From Arctopsyche grandis (lineage: Eukaryota > Arthropoda > Insecta > Trichoptera > Hydropsychidae): 64,000 nt of DNA. Location: the NCBI RefSeq assembly GCF_051622035.1, contig NC_135356.1:25140839-25204838 (forward strand), written 5' to 3'. Below the pieces are notes generated by a model, which was not told where the DNA came from, did no database searches, and saw only the letters and a program-made list of their open reading frames with translations. Position numbers and translations under genes: made by a program. Shown in pieces: positions 1,728 to 63,850 of the stretch (positions are counted from its first letter, which is position 1; each line of letters begins with the position of its first letter).

Positions 1728-1733
1728 TTTATT
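1728..1733 (-). promoter_or_regulatory. Candidate PMCA polyadenylation signal AATAAA
   Basis: On the minus strand AATAAA lies about 195 nt after the PMCA stop codon at 1929-1931. It is the only canonical AATAAA on that strand between 1000 and 1928, which would give a short 3' UTR of roughly 0.2 kb. A variant ATTAAA at 1491-1496 could serve a longer form. Confidence 0.5.
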
Positions 1734-1928: not shown

Positions 1929-4900
1929 TTATATTCTGGTCTCGTACATGGGTTTCGGCAGGAAAGAGCTTCCATGTGCTGACATATTCAACCTGGTGGG
2001 CGGTAGGAGCGCGTGATTAGGTGATTGCTGCGATCCCCTGGCATGTGAATCATCATCAAGATAAACGCCAACATGACTGCGAGAGCTGCGCAAGCTATTG
2101 AGACTGTGCACCGAATGTTTATCCTCGATGTTAGACCTGAAGGCTCTGATCACTCGCATCTGGGTCCGCAGACGGCTCAGACCCCTCATCCACAGGATCC
2201 GGCCTACTGATGTCTTCTCGGACTCCTCGCTGAAACTGTTCTCGCCTTGACCGTCATTATAATCCGTTGACATCCCCATTCCCCAAGACATGCTATGCGG
2301 CATCTTATTCGTCGGAATGCACGTGATGATTTGGCCCCATACCAGAGTACCTATTCCGAAGAACACGCACCACATCCACTGATCAAAGGTTAGTGACTTA
2401 GTGGCAAAAGCGACCTGGCCGTATTGGATGATGAGCACCTGAGCTACGCATGTTATTATCCAGATAGAATAGAAAATCGGATTTGTCAATAAGCCCTTGA
2501 AGATGTTCCTCTCTCCGTGAATCTTCCTTGCGTTCAGCTCGTTAAAAAGTGTCATTATGACGAACGTATTGAATATAATAGTGAAGTGTTGAGTAGGTGC
2601 GGATCCATAGGCTAAACCGCGTCCAGATTGGATATCAAAGAATTTGTCTCCGAAAAACAACAGTGTGAAGATAACAGTCAGTTGATAGAAAGCCTGTCCT
2701 AAGATATTCTTCATCATGGTACGTGAAATCAAGGGCTTAGTCCTGCCGTAAGGTTTGCGCAATAGTAATTCGAGAGTAGGCATTTCAGTCGCCAAAGCTA
2801 AAGAAGCTAAGGTGTCCATAATAAGATTAACCCAGAGCATCTGTACGGCCTTTAATGGACTGTCTTGAATGGCACAAGCTCCGACAAAAGCTACAACAAC
2901 GGCTACAACGTTGACGGTTAACTGGAACTGCAGAAACTTGGCAATACTATCATAAACATTTCTGCCCCACATTACAGCTTTAACGATACTGCTAAAATTA
3001 TCGTCGGTTAAGATTATGTCAGAAGCTTCTTTAGCGACATCAGTGCCTGCTATACCCATAGCGAATCCAACATCTGCCCTCTTGAGGGCTGGTCCATCAT
3101 TAGTGCCGTCTCCAGTAACTGCGACCACTTCCCTGTTAGGAGAAAGCTTGCTGTTGATGATACCATCAACCAGTGAGTACTTATCAGTAGGAGATGAACG
3201 AGCCAGTACTCTTAGCCTTGGCCAAATCTTATCTATCAAAGCCTGTTGAATGTTGCCTTGACTGTCACGTATGCGTCGATTGAACTCCTTGCCTTCCAAT
3301 ACCAAAAAATCATCAGCAGGTTGGATGATACCACACTTGATAGCGATTGATCTAGCGGTGTTTATATTATCTCCAGTGATCATCCTCACTGTGATCCCAG
3401 CAATTTGACATTGACGTATAGCCTCGGGAACTTCAGCTCTAACCGGATCTTCAATTCCAACCACGCAAAGGCAAGTCATATTCTTAGTGATGTTCTCCTC
3501 GTCCTCCCAATTCGGTACGACATCCCCTCGAAAGTCTTTGTAGGCTAATGCAATTGTGCGAAGTCCATTGCTGGCCATGGGATCAATCACCTGATTTAGC
3601 ATCCTTTCCAACATGTCCGGCGTCAGCTTCTCTTTTTTTCCATTGTGTCCGTAGATGTATCCGCACTTTTTCATCACTATTTCAGAAGCGCCTTTCATGT
3701 ACAGTCGATAGCCACCGCCAATTTTCGGTATAACAGTGCTCATGGATTTGCGCACGGAGTTGAACGTGTATACTCTTACGAACGATTCTTCGGGGATGCC
3801 GTCCCTAATGGCCTGGTAATCTTTCCCTAGCGAGTTGACGAATCCCAAGAGAGCACACTCGGTCTTGTTTCCAATCTGCGTCGGCAATTCGAACGAATCT
3901 CTAGGATAAATGGTTTTCGAAGTGTATGCCGAATTCACCGATATTCCCTCGACTATGAGTCTGGCGACCTGTCTTGGTAGATCTTCATATATCGGATCGG
4001 ATTTTCTGAGCTTTTCGCATATGTAAGATTCGACTACAGTCATCCGATTGGTGGTCAAAGTGCCCGTTTTGTCGGAGCAGATGGCCGTAGCATTTCCCAT
4101 AGTCTCGCAAGCGTCCAAATGTCGCACCAAGTTGTTGTCCAACATCATTTTCTTGACGGAGTAGGCCAAAGAAAGAGTAACGGCGAGGGGCAATCCTTCA
4201 GGTACGGCAACAACCAAAACTGTAACACCGATGATGAAATGTTGAACGAAGATGTTTATATAGAAGTGCCTCCACCTTTTTTGTTCGATGACGAAAGTTG
4301 TCATACAGAACTGAATGATCAAAATAACGACTGTGAACACGGCGATAGACGAGCCTGCATATCCTATTTGAATTGCCAATTTCGTCAATTTTGCCTGTAG
4401 TACTGACTTTTCTTTTTTGTTGGAGTTTTCAGATGGTTTATCACTGCCGATTATTGGTTTTTCTTCTTCACAGGCGGTAGGAGATGTGGCGCCACTGTTG
4501 CCGTTTCCACCGTCATCGCTAGAGCTGTTTCTCTTCTTTCGTCTCGCATTCTTCTTAGCTTTTTTTTTTCCACCTTTCTTATCCAGAGTAGCACCCAAAA
4601 GCGTTAATATAATTCCAGATTGAGAGTTCATCCCGACAGCTGTTACTAACATCTTTCCACTACCTTCCATGACATGTGTGCCGGAAAGCAACATCGGATC
4701 GACGGTATCGCCCTTCTTTACATGATCAGACTCGCCAGTTAATGTAGATTCGTCTACTTGAAGATCGTTGCTTTGTATAAGAACCCCATCAGCTGGAAGC
4801 AAATCTCCATACTTGACCTGGCATATATCGCCCACTAGTATTTCGGCTACCGGAAGTTGGTTCAGCTCCCCCTTGCGTATTACGGAGAACTTGTGCTCCC

Positions 4901-5393
4901 CCTCGATTCTAATTTGCAGTCCACGGAATTGTTTCTCTTTGGTGTAATCATTAGAAGCGGTGACGATGACGACAACGACGACTGAGGCGAGAATGGCAGC
5001 GCCTTCGATCCAACCGTGGTGTGCTTCATCATCCTCTACATCGGATTGTTTGTCATAAAGCTGATAGAGACACAATCCGAGTGAAACTGCAGAAGCAGCC
5101 TGAAGGATGACTAGAGTGATATCATGAAGAGCCTCCCATGCAAGACTAAAAAAAGATTTAGACGGCTTACGTGGTATTACGTTGGAGCCGAACGTCTCCT
5201 TTCTATGTGCAATGTCAGCAGACGAACCGCTGAGACCATCAGTCGGTGATGTATATAGCTTCTCACACATTTCGTGAACACCTCCATAACCGCTCACCTT
5301 TAACGATCCCTCGGCCCCCCTGTTCTCCATCAACTCCTTCAGCTGCTTCAGTGTGATGCCATACTTAGCTGGACGCCCGTTTACGGTCGCCAT
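1929..5393 (-). CDS. PMCA: Plasma-membrane calcium-transporting ATPase, coding region in a single exon
   Basis: A P2B-type ATPase expected to pump cytosolic Ca2+ out across the plasma membrane using ATP. The full length of 1154 aa fits the family. Visible in order: N-terminal cytoplasmic region; M1-M2 (about 89-146); actuator domain with TGES (219-222); Lys- and Ser-rich linker (about 270-335); M3-M4 with PEGLP (398-402; Glu399 a Ca2+ ligand); phosphorylation motif DKTGTLT with Asp441; KGAS (567-570) in the nucleotide domain; [12 protein letters not shown] hinge (760-771); M5-M10 with Asn856 and Asp860 in M6 as the other Ca2+-site residues; basic, amphipathic calmodulin-binding-like segment (about 1065-1088); C-terminal ETRI, which fits a class I PDZ ligand. 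The start is well fixed: an in-frame TGA lies five codons upstream (5406-5408) and the context is A at -3 and G at +4. Stop TAA is at 1929-1931. Odd: no intron interrupts the coding sequence, and the M1 position where I recall a conserved Glu in the family holds Gln98. It could be the main PMCA gene after intron loss or a retroposed paralogue. Confidence 0.97.
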
Positions 5394-5415
5394 TCTTGCA
5401 GGTGTTCACTTACCT
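5394..5415 (-). promoter_or_regulatory. 3' splice site and last 20 nt of the PMCA 5' UTR
   Basis: On the minus strand a pyrimidine-containing stretch ends in TTTTACAG (AG at 5414-5415) and is followed directly by GTAAGTGAACACC and then the ATG. The AG is a plausible acceptor, so the coding exon would start at 5413. The joint sequence CAG|GTAAGT is also a perfect donor consensus and resembles a recursive-splice (ratchet) site. An alternative acceptor (CTGCAAG just before AATGG) lacks a pyrimidine tract and looks weaker. Confidence 0.55.
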
Positions 5416-5691
5416 GTAAAAGTAAACTAATTAATATTCTGGCAATATTCATATTATCAAGAGTTTTTATCTTATTAACTGCTCCAGATAAAAATATCAT
5501 CGGTATACGGGCAGAAAACGTAAAGTCAAATATTTAATGTTTTGAATTTGAATTTTTTTGAATTTGTTAAGTCAAAAAATGTATAATGATTTAGGTCACA
5601 AAATAGAGACAACTGTTTTTCGAAAAAAAGCGATTGTTTCAAAACAAAGATTTTTGACTTAAAGCTTTGTGCCAGTATACCGACAATATAA

Positions 5692-5730
5692 TCTAACAAT
5701 GAGTATTGCTTTCTAACAATGAGTATTGCT
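5692..5730. repeat. Two-copy 20-bp tandem repeat
   Basis: The unit TCTAACAATGAGTATTGCT occurs twice in a row (5692-5710 and 5712-5730) with one T between the copies. Confidence 0.9.
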
Positions 5731-6978
5731 AGAAATGATGAATGGATTTTGAAGTTGGACGTTTAAAATTGTTATATAATATCTAATGTATGCAGAGCAA
5801 ATTAGATAGATCTTTCTAGACATTCACGTCTCATATTTTAATAAAATATAATTGTTTTATATTGTGGAATATCTATACTTTGATGTACTTTTAATAAAAT
5901 TTTATTAAGTCGAGTCAAAAGTCCGTCACACTTGATCAAACTCGTGACTCGAAATTGATTTGTACTGGGTGCGTTTGTGAATTACAGATAGGAGTTCAAT
6001 TGTGGTCTAATTGAAAGCTTTATTGATAAATATTTAATGAAATATTACTCAAAAAGGTATGTCCTAAAATATTTAATTAAAATTCTAGCAAAAACATAAT
6101 TACTTTTGTAAAAATTTTGATTAGAATATCCACCCCCGAATTCGGAATTTTTTATAAAAATTCAAAAAAGGTTTTTAAAGCAGATCTCTACTCGACCCCG
6201 CCATGATTTTAAACAATTATTAAATTTTAACTATTCATTCAGATATGAGAAACTGCCACAAATTGTCACAAAGTATTCATATTTTACGTTAAAATTGTAT
6301 CTTTATTTTGTCAATTGCTACACTGCTAATCAAATTTTAACTTTTTTTTGTATCACCATTGAAACGTAATTTTTCTGATATATTTTTTCACACTGAATAA
6401 AATATGATTATCAAATATATGTACTATATCAATCGTAAAATTTTTCTATACAAAATGCAATGGAAATTCAATAAGATAAAGTAAAAATTTAAAAATTGGT
6501 CGAGTTTTAACAAGGTTACTCTATACAACTGCAAATCTGACACACATATACTTAATAATAAATATAATAAATAAGAGGCAAACTTTTTCGTGAATTGTAA
6601 TCGTAAGTGAAACGTAAAGGAGGTATGCAAAAATCGAAGGGGAAACATGTGAAAATGAAGTGTGGTGTAGATTGGAAATGCTTTCATATATGTACATACA
6701 TACATATGTCGCTATGGTGGGTAAAAATCAATTTCAATTTAAACTGTACATATGTACATACATACAACCAATCCAATCTACTTGATTGGAGTGTATGATG
6801 TTTGCTTTTTTTGCAATCATCTTTCTCTTGACCACACCTCAAAAGTGTGATCTATAATTGTGAATTTATAATTGTCACAATGTTTTTTTAAGGCAGTGGT
6901 ATCATATTATCTTTTAAAGTTAAGAAGGAAACGATCATCCAATGGACATGAATGTGTGTATGTGTTTACGTTCGTATA
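5731..6978. other. Intronic AT-rich sequence, no gene
   Basis: No protein domain, RNA gene or clear repeat. Short TACATATGTA-like motifs occur near 6690 and 6750. Confidence 0.6.
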
Positions 6979-35280: not shown

Positions 35281-35364
35281 ATGAAATCCAAAGATGTGGT
35301 GCTTCAGCACAGCTTTTAAAGCTGGCCCACCTCTACCGCCTCCACCTCAACCGCCGTACACCGT
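35281..35364 (-). other. Proposed internal 5'-UTR exon of PMCA (84 nt)
   Basis: On the minus strand it is bounded by the acceptor GGAATTGTTTCAG|ACGG and the donor TTTCAT|GTAAGT. It is GC-richer than the intron around it, has stops in all frames and contains no ATG, as expected for an untranslated leader exon. Joined to the coding exon at 5413 (which starts GTAAGTG) it would create ATG-TAA across the junction. Supported only by consensus and position. Confidence 0.45.
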
Positions 35365-48349: not shown

Positions 48350-48890
48350 AGTCATGTGACTGTGGACAGTTTCGGAAAAGCGTATGGGAGGAGTGGAGGT
48401 GCGCGTTCATCTGATATGTTGGCACGTGTCTGATGAGAGGTGGGCCTCATCAGTGGCGTGCACATGGCTGGGCCGGCAGGGGGCGCGCGGGGCCCAACAG
48501 CCCTTGTGGAGGGCGCGCGCCCACCACCACCTGAAACTCTATTTCCAAAGGGGTGCCGGCGCCGGGTTGGCCACCTCTGCAGGTCTCTGTCCTCCCACAC
48601 CAAGAGACGGGGACGAAGAACCGGACCCGCGCACGCACGCGTACCCGTATTGAACCGCCCCACACACACACACCCCTCCACGTGTAGCGAACACCCATAC
48701 GCGTGTTGTATACCTATGAGATGTGAGGATACTTACGTTTTTTCCGGCACTTGAACTGATGGTTTGTTCGAAATTCCGGCTGGTAGATGGGAAGGCTGCG
48801 CGACCGGCCGTCGGCCCGTCCGCTGCCGTGTGAAAGCGCGCCGAATCGCTGGCGCTGGGAAAACTTTTCGCGCGCCGATTTGAGTATGAG
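48350..48890. promoter_or_regulatory. GC- and CpG-rich island, proposed PMCA promoter region
   Basis: The segment is GC-rich and dense in CpG (for example GGGCGCGCGGGGCCC near 48480 and GCGCGACCGGCCGTCGGCCC near 48799) within very AT-rich DNA. It has (CA)n at 48662-48672. Overlapping frames on both strands (up to 109 codons) are unrelated to known proteins and come from the lack of A/T stops. It sits over the proposed minus-strand first exon. Confidence 0.5.
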
Positions 48891-49310: not shown

Positions 49311-50760
49311 AATCTAAAATCCCCTCTGCGCCCCCTTAGCTATTGCCGTTTAGGGCTTCGCCCCTCTGCGCCCCCCTTAGCTAATGCCTTTAAGGGCTGC
49401 GCCCCTCTGCGCCCCCTGTGGCGCCACTGGCGGGGCCCCATGAGACTACACCCCTTGTGCCCATTGTGCATTGGTGCATCCATTGAATCGAAAAAAATCA
49501 AATCAGTGCCTATGAATCGAATGATGGCTGCGCCCCCCTGGGCCCCCTTCGGGGCCCCATGGGACTGAGTCCCATAAGGCTGCGCCCCCTTCGGGGCCCC
49601 ATGGAACTGAGCCCCATAAGGCTGCGCCCCCTTCGGGGCCCCATGCGGCTACGCCCCCTTCGGGGCCTCATGGGACCGAGCCCCATAAGGCTGCGCCCCC
49701 TTCGGAGCCCCATGCGGCTACGCCCCCTTCGGGGCCCCATGGGACCGAGCCCCATAAGGCTGCGCCCCCTTCGGAGCCCCATGTGGCTACGCCCCCTTCG
49801 GGGCCCCATGAGACTGCATTCCCCTCTGCCTGGGCCCCCTTCGGGGCCCCATGGGACTGAGTCCCATAAGGCTGCGCCCCCTTCGGGGCCCCATGGAACT
49901 GAGCCCCATAAGGCTGCGCCCCCTTCGGGGCCCCATGCGGCTACGCCCCCTTCGGGGCCTCATGGGACCGAGCCCCATAAGGCTGCGCCCCCTTCGGAGC
50001 CCCATGCGGCTACGCCCCCTTCGGGGCCCCATGGGACCGAGCCCCATAAGGCTGCGCCCCCTTCGGAGCCCCATGTGGCTACGCCCCCTTCGGGGCCCCA
50101 TGAGACTGCATTCCCCTCTGCCCCTTTGGGGCCCCATGTGGCTGAGCCCCATAAGACTGCGCCCCCTTCGGGGCCCCATGGGGCTACGCCCCTGCGGGGG
50201 TGAATCCATTGAATCGAAAAAAATCAAATCGGCGCCTATGAATCGAAAAAAAAATAAATCGAATCATTTGTTCGATGACGGCTGCGCCCCCCTGGGCCCC
50301 CTTCGGGACCCCATGCGGCTGCGCCCCCTTCGGGGCCCCATGAAGCTGCGCACCCTTCGAGGCCCCATTCGGCTGAGCCCCATAAGGCTGCGCCCCCTTC
50401 GGGGCCCCATGCGGCTACTCCCCCTTCGGAGCACCATAAGGCTGCGCCCCCTTCGGGGCCCCATGCGGCTACGCCCCCTTCGGGGCCTCATGGGACTGAG
50501 CCCCATATAGCTGCGCCCCCTTCGGGGCCCCATGCGGCTACGCCCCCTTTGGGGCCCCATGGGGCTGCGCCCCATGAGACTGCATCCCCCTCTACCCCCT
50601 TCGGTGGCTGAGCCCCATAAGACTGCGCCCCCTGTGGCGCCCCTGGCGGGGCCCCATGAAACTACAACCCTTGCGCCCCCGCGGGGGTGAATCCATTGAA
50701 AAAAATCAAATCGACGCCTATGAATCGAAAAAAAAAAAATCGAATCACGTGTTCGATGAC
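49311..50760. repeat. GC-rich minisatellite array with higher-order units
   Basis: Tandem variants of GGCTGCGCCCCCTTCGGGGC-CCCATG (about 25-30 bp), each carrying a small hairpin CCCCTTCGGGG. A near-identical 292-bp block is repeated in tandem (starts about 49559 and 49851). An AT-rich spacer with ATCCATTGAATCGAAAAAAA and CCTATGAATCGAA occurs three times (about 49476, 50202 and 50688) and divides the array into larger units. Long frames on both strands (up to 219 codons) are repeat translations such as MGPRRGRS, with no sign of a real protein. Confidence 0.95.
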
Positions 50761-61592: not shown

Positions 61593-62925
61593 GGGACACA
61601 CAGACGTATTTAAAAATACTCTTTCCATTAACGTAATACTAGATTTTCGTCGATTTTAATACTAGATTTTCGTCGTTTCTATTAGATTTTCGTAGATTTT
61701 CGTCGACACTACCTGGCCATACTAAAATTCGATTATTTTGCGTTGCCAGGTAATTTTTAATCGATTTTGGCGTTTGATATGAAGCACCCTCATGCATAAA
61801 GATGTAATTATGTGCATCTATGCCCTCAGGCACAACATACAAAATTGCAATACAAAAAATACACAGACGTATTTAAAATACTCTTTCCACTAACGTGATA
61901 CTAGATTTTCGTCGATTTTATTCAATTTTTTTATATACACATGATATATTTATCAATAATACTTACAAAGAAAAACTATAATTAACTTAAAATATTTAGT
62001 GGTCTCTCCCCTTTTTTTAAACAGCACTAATCTTCCGCGGCATACTCTTTATGCATGACTCTATTATTGTTTTTTTTATTTGTGAATTATTTTTCCACGT
62101 GTCTATTATTTTTTCTTTAAAATTATTCAACGTAGTATTAGGGCTATTATAAATAATATTTTTTAATAACCCCCAACCATTTTTTAATTGGATTTAAATC
62201 TTCCTGGACATACTAAAATTCAATTATTTTGCGTTGCCAGGTAATTTTTAATCGATTTTGGCGTTTGATATGAAGCACCGTCATGCATAAAGATGTAATT
62301 ATGTGCATCTATGCCCTCAGGCACAACATACAAAATTGCGATACGAAAAACACACGGACATATTTAAAAATACCCTTTCCACTAACGTGATACTAGATTT
62401 TCGTCGATTTTATTCATTTTTTTATATACACATGATGTATTTATCAATAATACTTACAAAGAAAAACTATAATTAACTTAAAATATTTAGTGGTCTCTCC
62501 CCTTTTTTTTAAACAGCACTAGTCTTCCGCGGCATACTCTTTATGCATGACTCTATTGTTGTTTTTTTTATTTGTGAATTATTTTTCCAGGTGTCTAGTA
62601 TTTTTTCTTTAAAATTATTCAACGTAGTATTAGGACTGTTATAAATAATATTTTTTAATACCCCCCAACAATTTTAAATTGGATTTAAATCTTCCTGGCC
62701 ATACTAAAATTCGATTATTTTGCGTGGCCAGGTAATTTTGAATCGATTTTGCCGTGTGACACGAAGCGCCCTCATGCATAAAGATGTAATTACATATGTC
62801 CATCCATGCCCTCAGGCACAAAATACAAAATTGCATTTGCCCCAACGTAACACCACAAATTAAACGGGTCCAGCTTCTTTCCGCTAATAACCGACCACAC
62901 CATCACATATGCACAGTGTATATGT
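61593..62925 (-). pseudogene. Tc1/mariner-like transposase relic with tandemly duplicated segment
   Basis: On the minus strand the C-terminal half of a Tc1-like DDE transposase is readable: MVWSVISGKKLDPFNLW near 62905-62855, FMHEGASCHTAKSIQNYL near 62785, VWPG, DLNPI...CWGVLKNIIYN near 62690-62640, and SCIKSMPRK near 62545 before a stop. A segment of about 490 bp including the GASCH motif is tandemly repeated, so the motif occurs three times (near 61790, 62285 and 62785). The catalytic Asp of the x-Asp-Gly-Ala motif is Glu in the first and third copies but Asp in the middle one. Terminal sequence ACTAGATTTTCGTCGATTTT is also repeated at 61638, 61659, 61902 and 62391. Frameshifts make it non-functional. 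Confidence 0.8.
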
Positions 62926-63850
62926 GATGAAATTGATCAAATTATTCTGCGTTCGGCGTGGTGTGTAACGTGCATTTCCAGCAGCTGTATCAAAATGGGT
63001 TTTTAAAATACTGTCTCCTCCCTCAATTCGATGCGCATAAAGTTGTTCAACATTTCCTTTGGTGCTATCTTTCCCACGAATTGCCAAATCATTTGTTCCA
63101 GAAAATAAGATTGTTGAAATAATAGGATACAGTTTCTTTCTGTTTTCTTCAATAGTTCGTTTTACAGAATTATCTATCTGACAAATAATATCCTTATTTG
63201 GATCTCTAGTGTTTGACGCGAAGTGTTCAGCATCTTGTTGAGACCCACGATGCCATGCTGAGCTGGTATGGTTTCTGGCACATTCATTAAAATCTTTGTA
63301 CTTAGTACAAGGAGTAGTAATGAAGTAACCTTGAATTCCTCTTTGAACTGGTTGCGGAAATAAATCACAGAAAATGCAAAAAGCACCTTTTAACCTAGGT
63401 GAATATCTAACCATGGAGTATACTGGGTTAGCCAATACTCCCCGAAACAACGTTTTCCACTTCCTGACATGTCGCCTTCAAAATCATATGACGGGTGAGG
63501 CTTGTATGGACCAGTTAGCAAACAATACTTAAGCTTAAGATCGATAGGAATCTTCGTAGTAGATTTTACATAGATTCCAATATTATAGGTTAACCTAGTA
63601 TCTCCACTTTCAAGCTTGTCAGGGTCTGGTTCTGGTGATAGCGTTGCTGCTGCAGATGAACAAGCAACAGCATCCGTTTTCCGTTTTTTACAGACAGTAA
63701 TTAACCTTCTGTCTCTCCACACTTTCTTTATGCTAACACGAAGTGATTTAAAATAAAAGTAACATTATTTGACTATTTTCAATCAGTCCAGGGGGGGGCA
63801 AGTGCCTCCCCTTGCCCCCCCCCCCCCTGCGGGCGCCCATGTATGCACTG
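62926..63850 (-). pseudogene. hAT transposon relic (ZMYM1/TTF-finger type) with 5' end
   Basis: Minus strand. A terminus-like CAGTGCATACATGGGCGCCC at 63831-63850, followed by G/C-rich subterminal sequence, fits a hAT 5' end. Inside are two frames joined by a frameshift near 63430: PIDLKLKYCLLTGPYKPHP and GKRCFGEYWL (63390-63600), then SPRLKGAFCIFCDLFPQPVQ, ECARNHTSSAWHRGSQQDAE and DLAIRGKDSTKGN (62940-63420). The Cys pair and His spacing match a TTF-type zinc finger of ZMYM1-like hAT proteins. The frame ends abruptly near 62926 where Tc1-like sequence begins, so the catalytic part is missing. Confidence 0.8.

What the first reader, a model, noticed from the sequence alone, without database searches (positions are those of the whole stretch)
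1929..5413. PMCA coding sequence without introns but with a spliced-looking leader
The sequence shows an intact 1154-codon PMCA frame in one exon, while the 5' leader has an acceptor next to the ATG, an 84-nt candidate exon 30 kb upstream and a candidate first exon 43 kb upstream. PMCA genes of animals are known to have many coding introns. Loss of every coding intron with retention of the 5'-most introns is what reverse-transcribed mRNA recombining back into its own locus would leave, because cDNA synthesis starts at the 3' end. The alternative is a retrogene that acquired new upstream exons.
Basis: partly seen in the sequence, partly recalled or inferred. Interest (0 to 1): 0.75.

Follow-up and report, generated by a model that had tools for sequence, protein, structure and literature searches.

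The report
Ancient intronless calcium-pump retrogene in caddisfly
The window carries an intact, intron-free extra copy of the animal calcium pump gene PMCA in what appears to be the caddisfly Arctopsyche grandis; the usual many-intron gene sits on another contig, and the extra copy looks like an old, still-constrained retrogene rather than a gene that lost its introns in place.

Summary
The 1154-codon PMCA frame is real (1929-5393, minus strand) and intact, with catalytic, Ca-site and calmodulin-domain sequence in place. The genome (475.7 Mb) holds a second, canonical PMCA on contig C11. It matches P0043 (Arctopsyche grandis, Trichoptera) exactly over residues 1-1095 and is cut by 18 GT-AG coding introns, none of which is in the window copy. 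The copy is old: synonymous sites against the parent are saturated (fourfold identity 0.297, chance 0.271) while dN is 0.216. It keeps a tail motif that the 10 named canonical Trichoptera/Lepidoptera rows lack and groups with a second PMCA of the moth Eumeta (100/99; long branches). It probably predates the caddisfly-moth split. The leader is unproven: the 84-nt exon ranks 97th of 399 candidates, with one genome match, itself. New here: the acceptor beside the ATG abuts the strand's strongest donor (CAG|GTAAGT), a ratchet-point-like motif. Expression and splicing could not be tested.

The parts
1929..5393 (-). Intron-free PMCA (plasma membrane Ca2+-ATPase) coding sequence, 1154 codons plus stop
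   Evidence: DKTGT at residue 441, TGES 219, PEGLP 398, KGAS 567, [11 protein letters not shown] 760, [15 protein letters not shown] 856
2079..2204 (-). Calmodulin-binding region and start of the tail ([22 protein letters not shown]...); the parent exon that ends in LQTQ stops inside it
   Evidence: Pfam ATP_Ca_trans_C residues 1064-1105; comparison with parent
1932..1943 (-). C-terminal ETRI (PDZ-ligand-like end; that role is recalled, not tested)
   Evidence: tails listed
5394..5413 (-). 20-nt stretch between the acceptor and the ATG (gtaagtgaacacctgcaaga)
5407..5422 (-). Juxtaposed acceptor and donor, tttacag|gtaagtg: acceptor rank 5 of 2715, donor rank 1 of 3383 on the strand; only CAGGTAAGT in the window on either strand
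5292..5300 (-). Donor-like site inside the CDS (aag|gtgagc, intron side beginning at 5297), 5th-ranked donor on the strand; with the acceptor at 5413 it forms the top-scoring candidate internal exon (116 nt)
35281..35364 (-). Candidate 84-nt 5' UTR exon, GC 0.54, one match in the genome (itself); rank 97 of 399 by splice score
48737..48900 (-). Candidate first exon in a GC-rich stretch (GC about 0.54); 3' end set by a GTAAGT donor at 48736, 5' end arbitrary
1728..1733 (-). AATAAA poly(A) signal about 195 nt after the stop codon

Best explanation
The window copy is an old, still-constrained retrogene. A spliced PMCA mRNA was reverse transcribed and inserted elsewhere, most likely in the common ancestor of caddisflies and moths or earlier, while the many-intron parent stayed at its own locus. 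The copy kept a complete pump with calmodulin-binding domain and ETRI tail, then evolved roughly two to four times faster than the parent but under strong protein constraint. It most likely works as a second plasma-membrane Ca2+ exporter with only one C-terminal form, because it has no coding introns with which to make the alternative tail seen in other insects. It must have taken on a promoter; the likeliest candidate here is the GC-rich stretch near 48.7 kb, spliced across a long leader intron to the acceptor 20 nt before the ATG. Shown: intact frame, intron-free state, multi-exon paralogue, saturated synonymous sites, tree position. Inferred: species, retroposition as the mechanism, age, promoter, splicing, expression, function.
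For: One place in the genome matches the window protein at 100%, and a second PMCA, split into many matches, lies on C11. P0043 residues 1-1095 match C11 exactly, in order, with 18 GT-AG introns; C11 has the same length (30775590) as the contig listed for P0043. Parent against window copy: 1074 aligned codons, 72.4% identical residues, dN 0.216, pS 0.841 (beyond correction), fourfold identity 0.297 of 333 sites against 0.271 by chance. Clade of window copy + P0003 + P0004 + Eumeta P0142: 100/99 with LG+G4, 99/97 with LG+C20. AU tests reject grouping the three copies with canonical Trichoptera (p 0.0005) and Eumeta with canonical Lepidoptera (p 0.0003), but not one large clade of all of them (p 0.37). 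The tail motif RSSRS is in the three copies and in 0 of the 10 named canonical Trichoptera/Lepidoptera rows printed. Private states of the three copies: Eumeta shares 5 of 17 comparable, the most of 185 rows; next best 4 of 20.
Against: No poly(A) tract after the coding sequence. An 18-nt direct pair flanks the frame (1621-1638 and 5569-5586, 17 of 18 alike); 0 of 100 shuffles reached it, but 31 of 200 real stretches of the window with the same spacing did, so it is no evidence of a target-site duplication. The clade and Eumeta are long branches and the tested groups were chosen after seeing a tree, so the AU values are generous; trees without Eumeta placed the clade elsewhere. Five shared private states is only just above the next row, and Eumeta itself lacks the RSSRS tail; only 86 of all 190 rows carry that motif, so it has been lost or spliced out elsewhere too. 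P0003 and P0004 come from unnamed contigs and may be transcripts, so their intron state is unknown. No expression evidence. DNA duplication followed by loss of all coding introns is not excluded. An acceptor close to the ATG in both copies is unexpected for a fully processed copy.
Confidence: 0.85

Rival explanations
1. In-place intron loss: reverse-transcribed PMCA mRNA recombined into a PMCA locus and removed all coding introns but left the 5' UTR introns. With the second copy known, this needs an earlier DNA duplication, then conversion of one duplicate.
For: Both copies have an acceptor-like site just before the ATG (12 nt in the parent, 20 nt in the window copy), as expected if the leader intron was retained.
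Against: A multi-exon canonical copy exists on another contig, so the window copy is not the only PMCA; two events are needed instead of one; leader exons are unproven and show no similarity above chance to the 25 kb around the parent.
Confidence: 0.1
2. Semi-processed retrocopy: an mRNA that still held the 3' end of its leader intron was copied, 5'-truncated and inserted, so the copy brought its own acceptor and could trap any upstream promoter and exon at once. (A special form of the best explanation.)
For: Acceptor-like site hugging the ATG in both genes; strong acceptor score at 5413 (rank 5 of 2715).
Against: No recognisable similarity between the two upstream sequences, though none would survive saturated divergence; new acceptors arise easily.
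Confidence: 0.12
3. Younger, caddisfly-only retrogene; its deep position and its link to Eumeta are long-branch artefacts.
For: Window row and Eumeta are long branches; only 5 of 17 private states are shared with Eumeta, next row 4 of 20; Eumeta lacks the RSSRS tail; without Eumeta the clade fell near flea and flies (83/93) or outside all other insects.
Against: AU test rejects the three copies with canonical Trichoptera (p 0.0005) and with canonical Trichoptera plus Lepidoptera without Eumeta (p 0.0035); the tail motif kept by the copies and by flea, sand fly and beetle is absent from the 10 named canonical Trichoptera/Lepidoptera rows, a trait that does not depend on branch length.
Confidence: 0.2

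Closest known systems
Canonical insect PMCA (ATP2B type, P2B ATPase), here P0043 on C11
   Same: Same domain order, catalytic and Ca-site motifs, calmodulin-binding region
   Different: 18 mapped coding introns in the canonical gene and alternative tails after LQTQ in other insects; the window copy has one coding exon, one tail, a loop of about 10 residues missing near residue 622, and faster evolution
Functional insect retrogenes, e.g. LWS2 opsin of noctuid moths (PMC5070202; abstract and outline seen)
   Same: Intron-free, intact frame, parent retained, less constrained than the parent
   Different: LWS2 arose within noctuids and has expression data; the PMCA copy is apparently far older and untested for expression
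Retrogenes that use distant CpG-rich sequence or gain exons (review PMC5408686; passages seen)
   Same: Candidate distant GC-rich first exon and long leader intron
   Different: Here the leader is only predicted, and CpG o/e at the candidate (about 1.2) is not above its AT-rich neighbours
Recursive splice sites (ratchet points) of Drosophila (PMC8605326; outline and introduction seen)
   Same: Juxtaposed acceptor and donor, with a further donor downstream (here 116 nt)
   Different: Those described lie mostly in long introns, few of them at expressed exons; this one lies 20 nt before a start codon, in what would be the last exon

Membership tests
PMCA (P2B calcium ATPase) | Family profile above its curated cut-off | tested here: met
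   TIGR01517 1079.7 bits, cut-off 507.05
PMCA (P2B calcium ATPase) | Phosphorylation, nucleotide, hinge and M4/M6 calcium-site motifs (which motif does what is recalled) | tested here: met
   [40 protein letters not shown] all present
PMCA (P2B calcium ATPase) | C-terminal calmodulin-binding domain sequence | tested here: met
   ATP_Ca_trans_C 39.9 bits, cut-off 22.9; binding itself not tested
PMCA (P2B calcium ATPase) | Ca2+ transport at the plasma membrane | not testable with these tools
   needs expression and a transport assay
Functional retrogene | Intron-free copy with an intron-bearing paralogue elsewhere in the genome | tested here: met
Functional retrogene | Intact frame under protein constraint | tested here: met
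   no internal stop; dN 0.216 with saturated synonymous sites
Functional retrogene | Poly(A) tract and target-site duplication (hallmarks of recent insertion) | tested here: inconclusive
   no A-run longer than 9 downstream; an 18-nt flanking pair, 17 of 18 alike, is matched by 31 of 200 real control pairs; such marks would be erased at this age
Functional retrogene | Transcription | not testable with these tools
   no reads available; P0003 and P0004 are relatives on unnamed contigs
In-place RNA-mediated intron loss | The gene without introns is the original locus, with no intron-bearing paralogue | tested here: not met
   intron-bearing PMCA on C11; synteny not testable
Recursive splice site (ratchet point) | Pyrimidine-rich tract + AG directly followed by a strong donor | tested here: met
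   tttacttttacag|gtaagt; 1 match on the minus strand, 0 on the plus, 0.05 expected per strand
Recursive splice site (ratchet point) | Intron removed in steps through the site | not testable with these tools
   no further exon downstream is known; needs nascent RNA or lariat reads

The most novel reading that the evidence does not exclude
The start-codon exon of this retrogene is a recursive-splicing exon: the leader splices to a ratchet point 20 nt before the ATG, which recreates a strong donor at once. With no downstream coding introns to mark the exon, the choice between keeping and re-using that donor would act as an on/off switch for the pump, on an acceptor possibly inherited from the parent's own leader intron.
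Probability: 0.08. Interest if true: 0.65.

Novelty: new member of a known kind. Interest (0 to 1): 0.45.

Why it matters
Animal PMCA genes are known (recalled; and here for one caddisfly) to be intron-rich, with alternative tails that tune calcium export. A full-length, single-exon, single-tail PMCA kept under constraint, probably since before the caddisfly-moth split, would be an old natural experiment in what the pump can do without alternative splicing. It would also mean that caddisflies and at least one moth share a second PMCA that did not surface for any other named moth in the best 120 of 7,984 scored proteins.

Tried and rejected
In-place intron loss as the main reading: set aside after the second PMCA was found. 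Artemia as the source organism (suggested by the top score of P0002): rejected, P0002 is a gene model with a repeated half that inflates its score. Lutzomyia P0122 as a clade member (third place): rejected for the same reason. Relics of other PMCA exons or of the alternative tail elsewhere in the window: none convincing by tblastn with 15 proteins (best stray E 0.29). tRNA and Rfam features: none found. Relatives' DNA in the viral and prokaryote collections: none. Transposon fragments by Pfam: 8 frames tried, no match to a transposon family. Target-site duplication: the 18-nt flanking pair beats 100 shuffles but not real control pairs (31 of 200). Papers: in the listings of searches (one found none) no title or abstract start that I saw reports an intron-free PMCA in insects; some of these listed only the best 12 of 32 or 132. 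Rows left out: P0002 and P0122 from the 188-row comparisons; P0002 was cut to its first 870 residues; trees used 38 of 121 rows, 35 of 168 and 29 of 190; core trees used 1022 columns (window residues 1-268 and 330-1083).

Full report
What is there. The minus strand of the window holds one open frame, 1929-5393, 1154 codons plus stop. It is a complete PMCA: Pfam Cation_ATPase_N, E1-E2_ATPase, Cation_ATPase, Cation_ATPase_C and ATP_Ca_trans_C all match in order; TIGR01517 (PMCA type) gives 1079.7 bits against a cut-off of 507.05; the best solved structures are PMCA1 and PMCA2. Catalytic and Ca-site motifs are present. About 65 stops would be expected in 1154 codons from the base composition, and the other two frames of the strand hold 80 and 74. 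So this is not a chance frame or a decayed copy.

Which genome. The tool gave no name. The genome has 475,669,232 bases and the window is C2:25140839-25204838. A second PMCA on C11 matches residues 1-1095 of P0043 exactly and in order, and C11 is 30,775,590 bases long, the same as the contig listed for P0043, 'plasma membrane calcium-transporting ATPase 3 [Arctopsyche grandis]'. I therefore take the genome to be Arctopsyche grandis, Trichoptera, Hydropsychidae (lineage). This is inference from two agreeing facts.

The parent. P0043 residues 1-1095 are spread over C11:24203350-24214188 in 19 pieces, with 18 GT-AG introns of 69 to about 4,040 bases. The last piece ends at LQTQ, where other insects switch between alternative tails (listed); the last 74 residues were not found by exact match in the 25 kb fetched, so a further intron there is inferred. 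Of the 18 introns, 17 map to a residue of the window copy and one falls in an alignment gap. The window frame is uninterrupted throughout.

Age and constraint. Parent and window copy share 72.4% of residues over 1074 aligned codons; dN is 0.216; pS is 0.841, beyond correction; fourfold sites agree in 0.297 of 333 cases against 0.271 expected by chance. The protein has been held while silent sites have turned over. The window copy still evolves faster than the parent: it differs from the canonical consensus at 269 of 1091 positions, the parent at 122 of 1088, and its path in the tree is about four times as long.

Where it belongs. In a search of 5.8 billion proteins the nearest in the 120 listed are P0003 (80%) and P0004 (75%), both from unnamed contigs, then insect PMCAs at about 65-71%. 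Those contigs may be transcripts, so they say nothing firm about introns; P0003's contig is 10.9 kb, longer than those of the other purely lgn PMCAs in that list. First trees, without Eumeta, put the three copies near flea and flies (83/93) or outside all other insects. In a tree of 29 rows the window copy, P0003 and P0004 group with P0142, a second PMCA of the moth Eumeta japonica, with 100/99 support under LG+G4 and 99/97 under LG+C20. AU tests reject the three copies as sisters of canonical Trichoptera (p 0.0005), the three with canonical Trichoptera and Lepidoptera without Eumeta (p 0.0035), and Eumeta with canonical Lepidoptera (p 0.0003); they do not reject one clade of all of these (p 0.37). 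The groups were chosen after seeing a tree, and long branches are in play, so I looked for evidence that does not depend on rate. The tail of the three copies keeps [14 protein letters not shown] and ends in HETRI or YETRI, much as in flea, sand fly and beetle; the 10 named canonical Trichoptera and Lepidoptera rows (two of one genus, two of one species) lack RSSRS and end in ETPI or ETTIF. The copy thus seems to have been made before the canonical gene changed in the common ancestor of the two orders. Against this: Eumeta's own tail lacks RSSRS, only 86 of all 190 rows carry the motif, and the private states that Eumeta shares with the three (5 of 17) are only slightly more than the next row of 185 (4 of 20). 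With Eumeta as the query, no other named moth came between it and the canonical genes among the 120 best of 7,984 scored.

The leader. The acceptor 20 nt before the ATG is strong (5th of 2715 AGs on the strand), but the same point is also the best donor on the strand (1st of 3383); the sequence reads tttacttttacag|gtaagtg. CAGGTAAGT occurs once in the window, both strands counted, and the longer ratchet pattern once where 0.05 per strand is expected. Another strong donor lies 116 nt further on, inside the coding sequence, giving the highest-scoring candidate internal exon on the strand. This is the layout described for recursive splice exons (introduction of PMC8605326), but those lie mostly in long introns, whereas here the start codon lies in the exon. 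The 84-nt exon ranks 97th of 399 by splice score, is GC-rich and has only itself as a match in the genome. The donor near 48.7 kb sits in a GC-rich stretch, which fits the known habit of retrogenes of using distant CpG-rich sequence (passage in PMC5408686); CpG o/e there is about 1.2, not above its AT-rich neighbours. Neither exon shows similarity above chance to the 25 kb around the parent. The splice matrices were written from memory.

The parent also has an acceptor-like site close to its ATG, 12 nt upstream (ttgtttttcag). An intron right before the start codon may therefore be a trait of the family that the copy inherited, either because it was made from a partly spliced RNA or by recombination. 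I keep this as a rival.

Marks of insertion. No poly(A) tract remains. An 18-nt direct pair flanks the frame (1621-1638 and 5569-5586, 17 of 18 alike). None of 100 shuffles reached it, but 31 of 200 real stretches of the window with the same spacing did, so I do not count it.

Verdict. The intron-free frame is confirmed, the in-place reading is not supported, the retrogene reading is. Function as a second calcium exporter with a single tail is inferred from intact motifs and constraint; expression, splicing and transport are untested.

Noticed in passing
L027 (C7:14615001-14622500) 2965-5982 minus: Another intron-free P-type ATPase in the same genome: a 1005-codon Na+/K+-ATPase alpha-like frame, above the TIGR01106 cut-off (1117.2 against 946.1 bits). 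An intron-bearing parent was not mapped.
   Followed up: partly
L028 (C2:36720001-36728000) 3126-6119 minus: A second intron-free Na+/K+-ATPase-like frame, 997 codons, below the TIGR01106 cut-off (748.6 bits); it reads GNNLND where the L027 frame reads GDGVND, so the pump may be altered or inactive.
   Followed up: partly
G000 contigs C56 (L029) and C86 (L030); C156 gave the same match as C86: Small contigs with long intron-free, AT-rich ATPase frames (943 and 1079 codons) that look microsporidian to me from memory; possibly contaminants or parasites in the assembly. Not tested.
   Followed up: no
window 3474-3533 (residues 621-640), minus: The copy and P0003 lack about 10 residues (VPGKAEINQVHID region) that P0004 and the rest keep: 88 of 90 readable rows keep them, 31 of 121 rows gave no readable segment.
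   Followed up: partly
window 49321-50600: GC-rich tandem repeats (units of 27, 42, 69 bases, GC up to 0.70) directly upstream of the GC-rich candidate promoter.
   Followed up: no
window 61712-62835 and 62639-63764: A 491-base tandem array (2.3 copies) and frames that resemble Tc1/mariner and hAT-type transposon pieces by eye (recalled motifs); three frames from 62642 to 63764 gave no transposon match in Pfam.
   Followed up: partly
P0142 (Eumeta japonica): The gene model lacks two internal stretches (after QIGYA and after MASDGL) that do not coincide with whole parental exons, as if introns had been predicted inside one long exon; DNA not available.
   Followed up: partly
P0002 (Artemia franciscana), P0122 (Lutzomyia longipalpis): Public PMCA gene models with a repeated part, which inflates their search scores.
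   Followed up: yes
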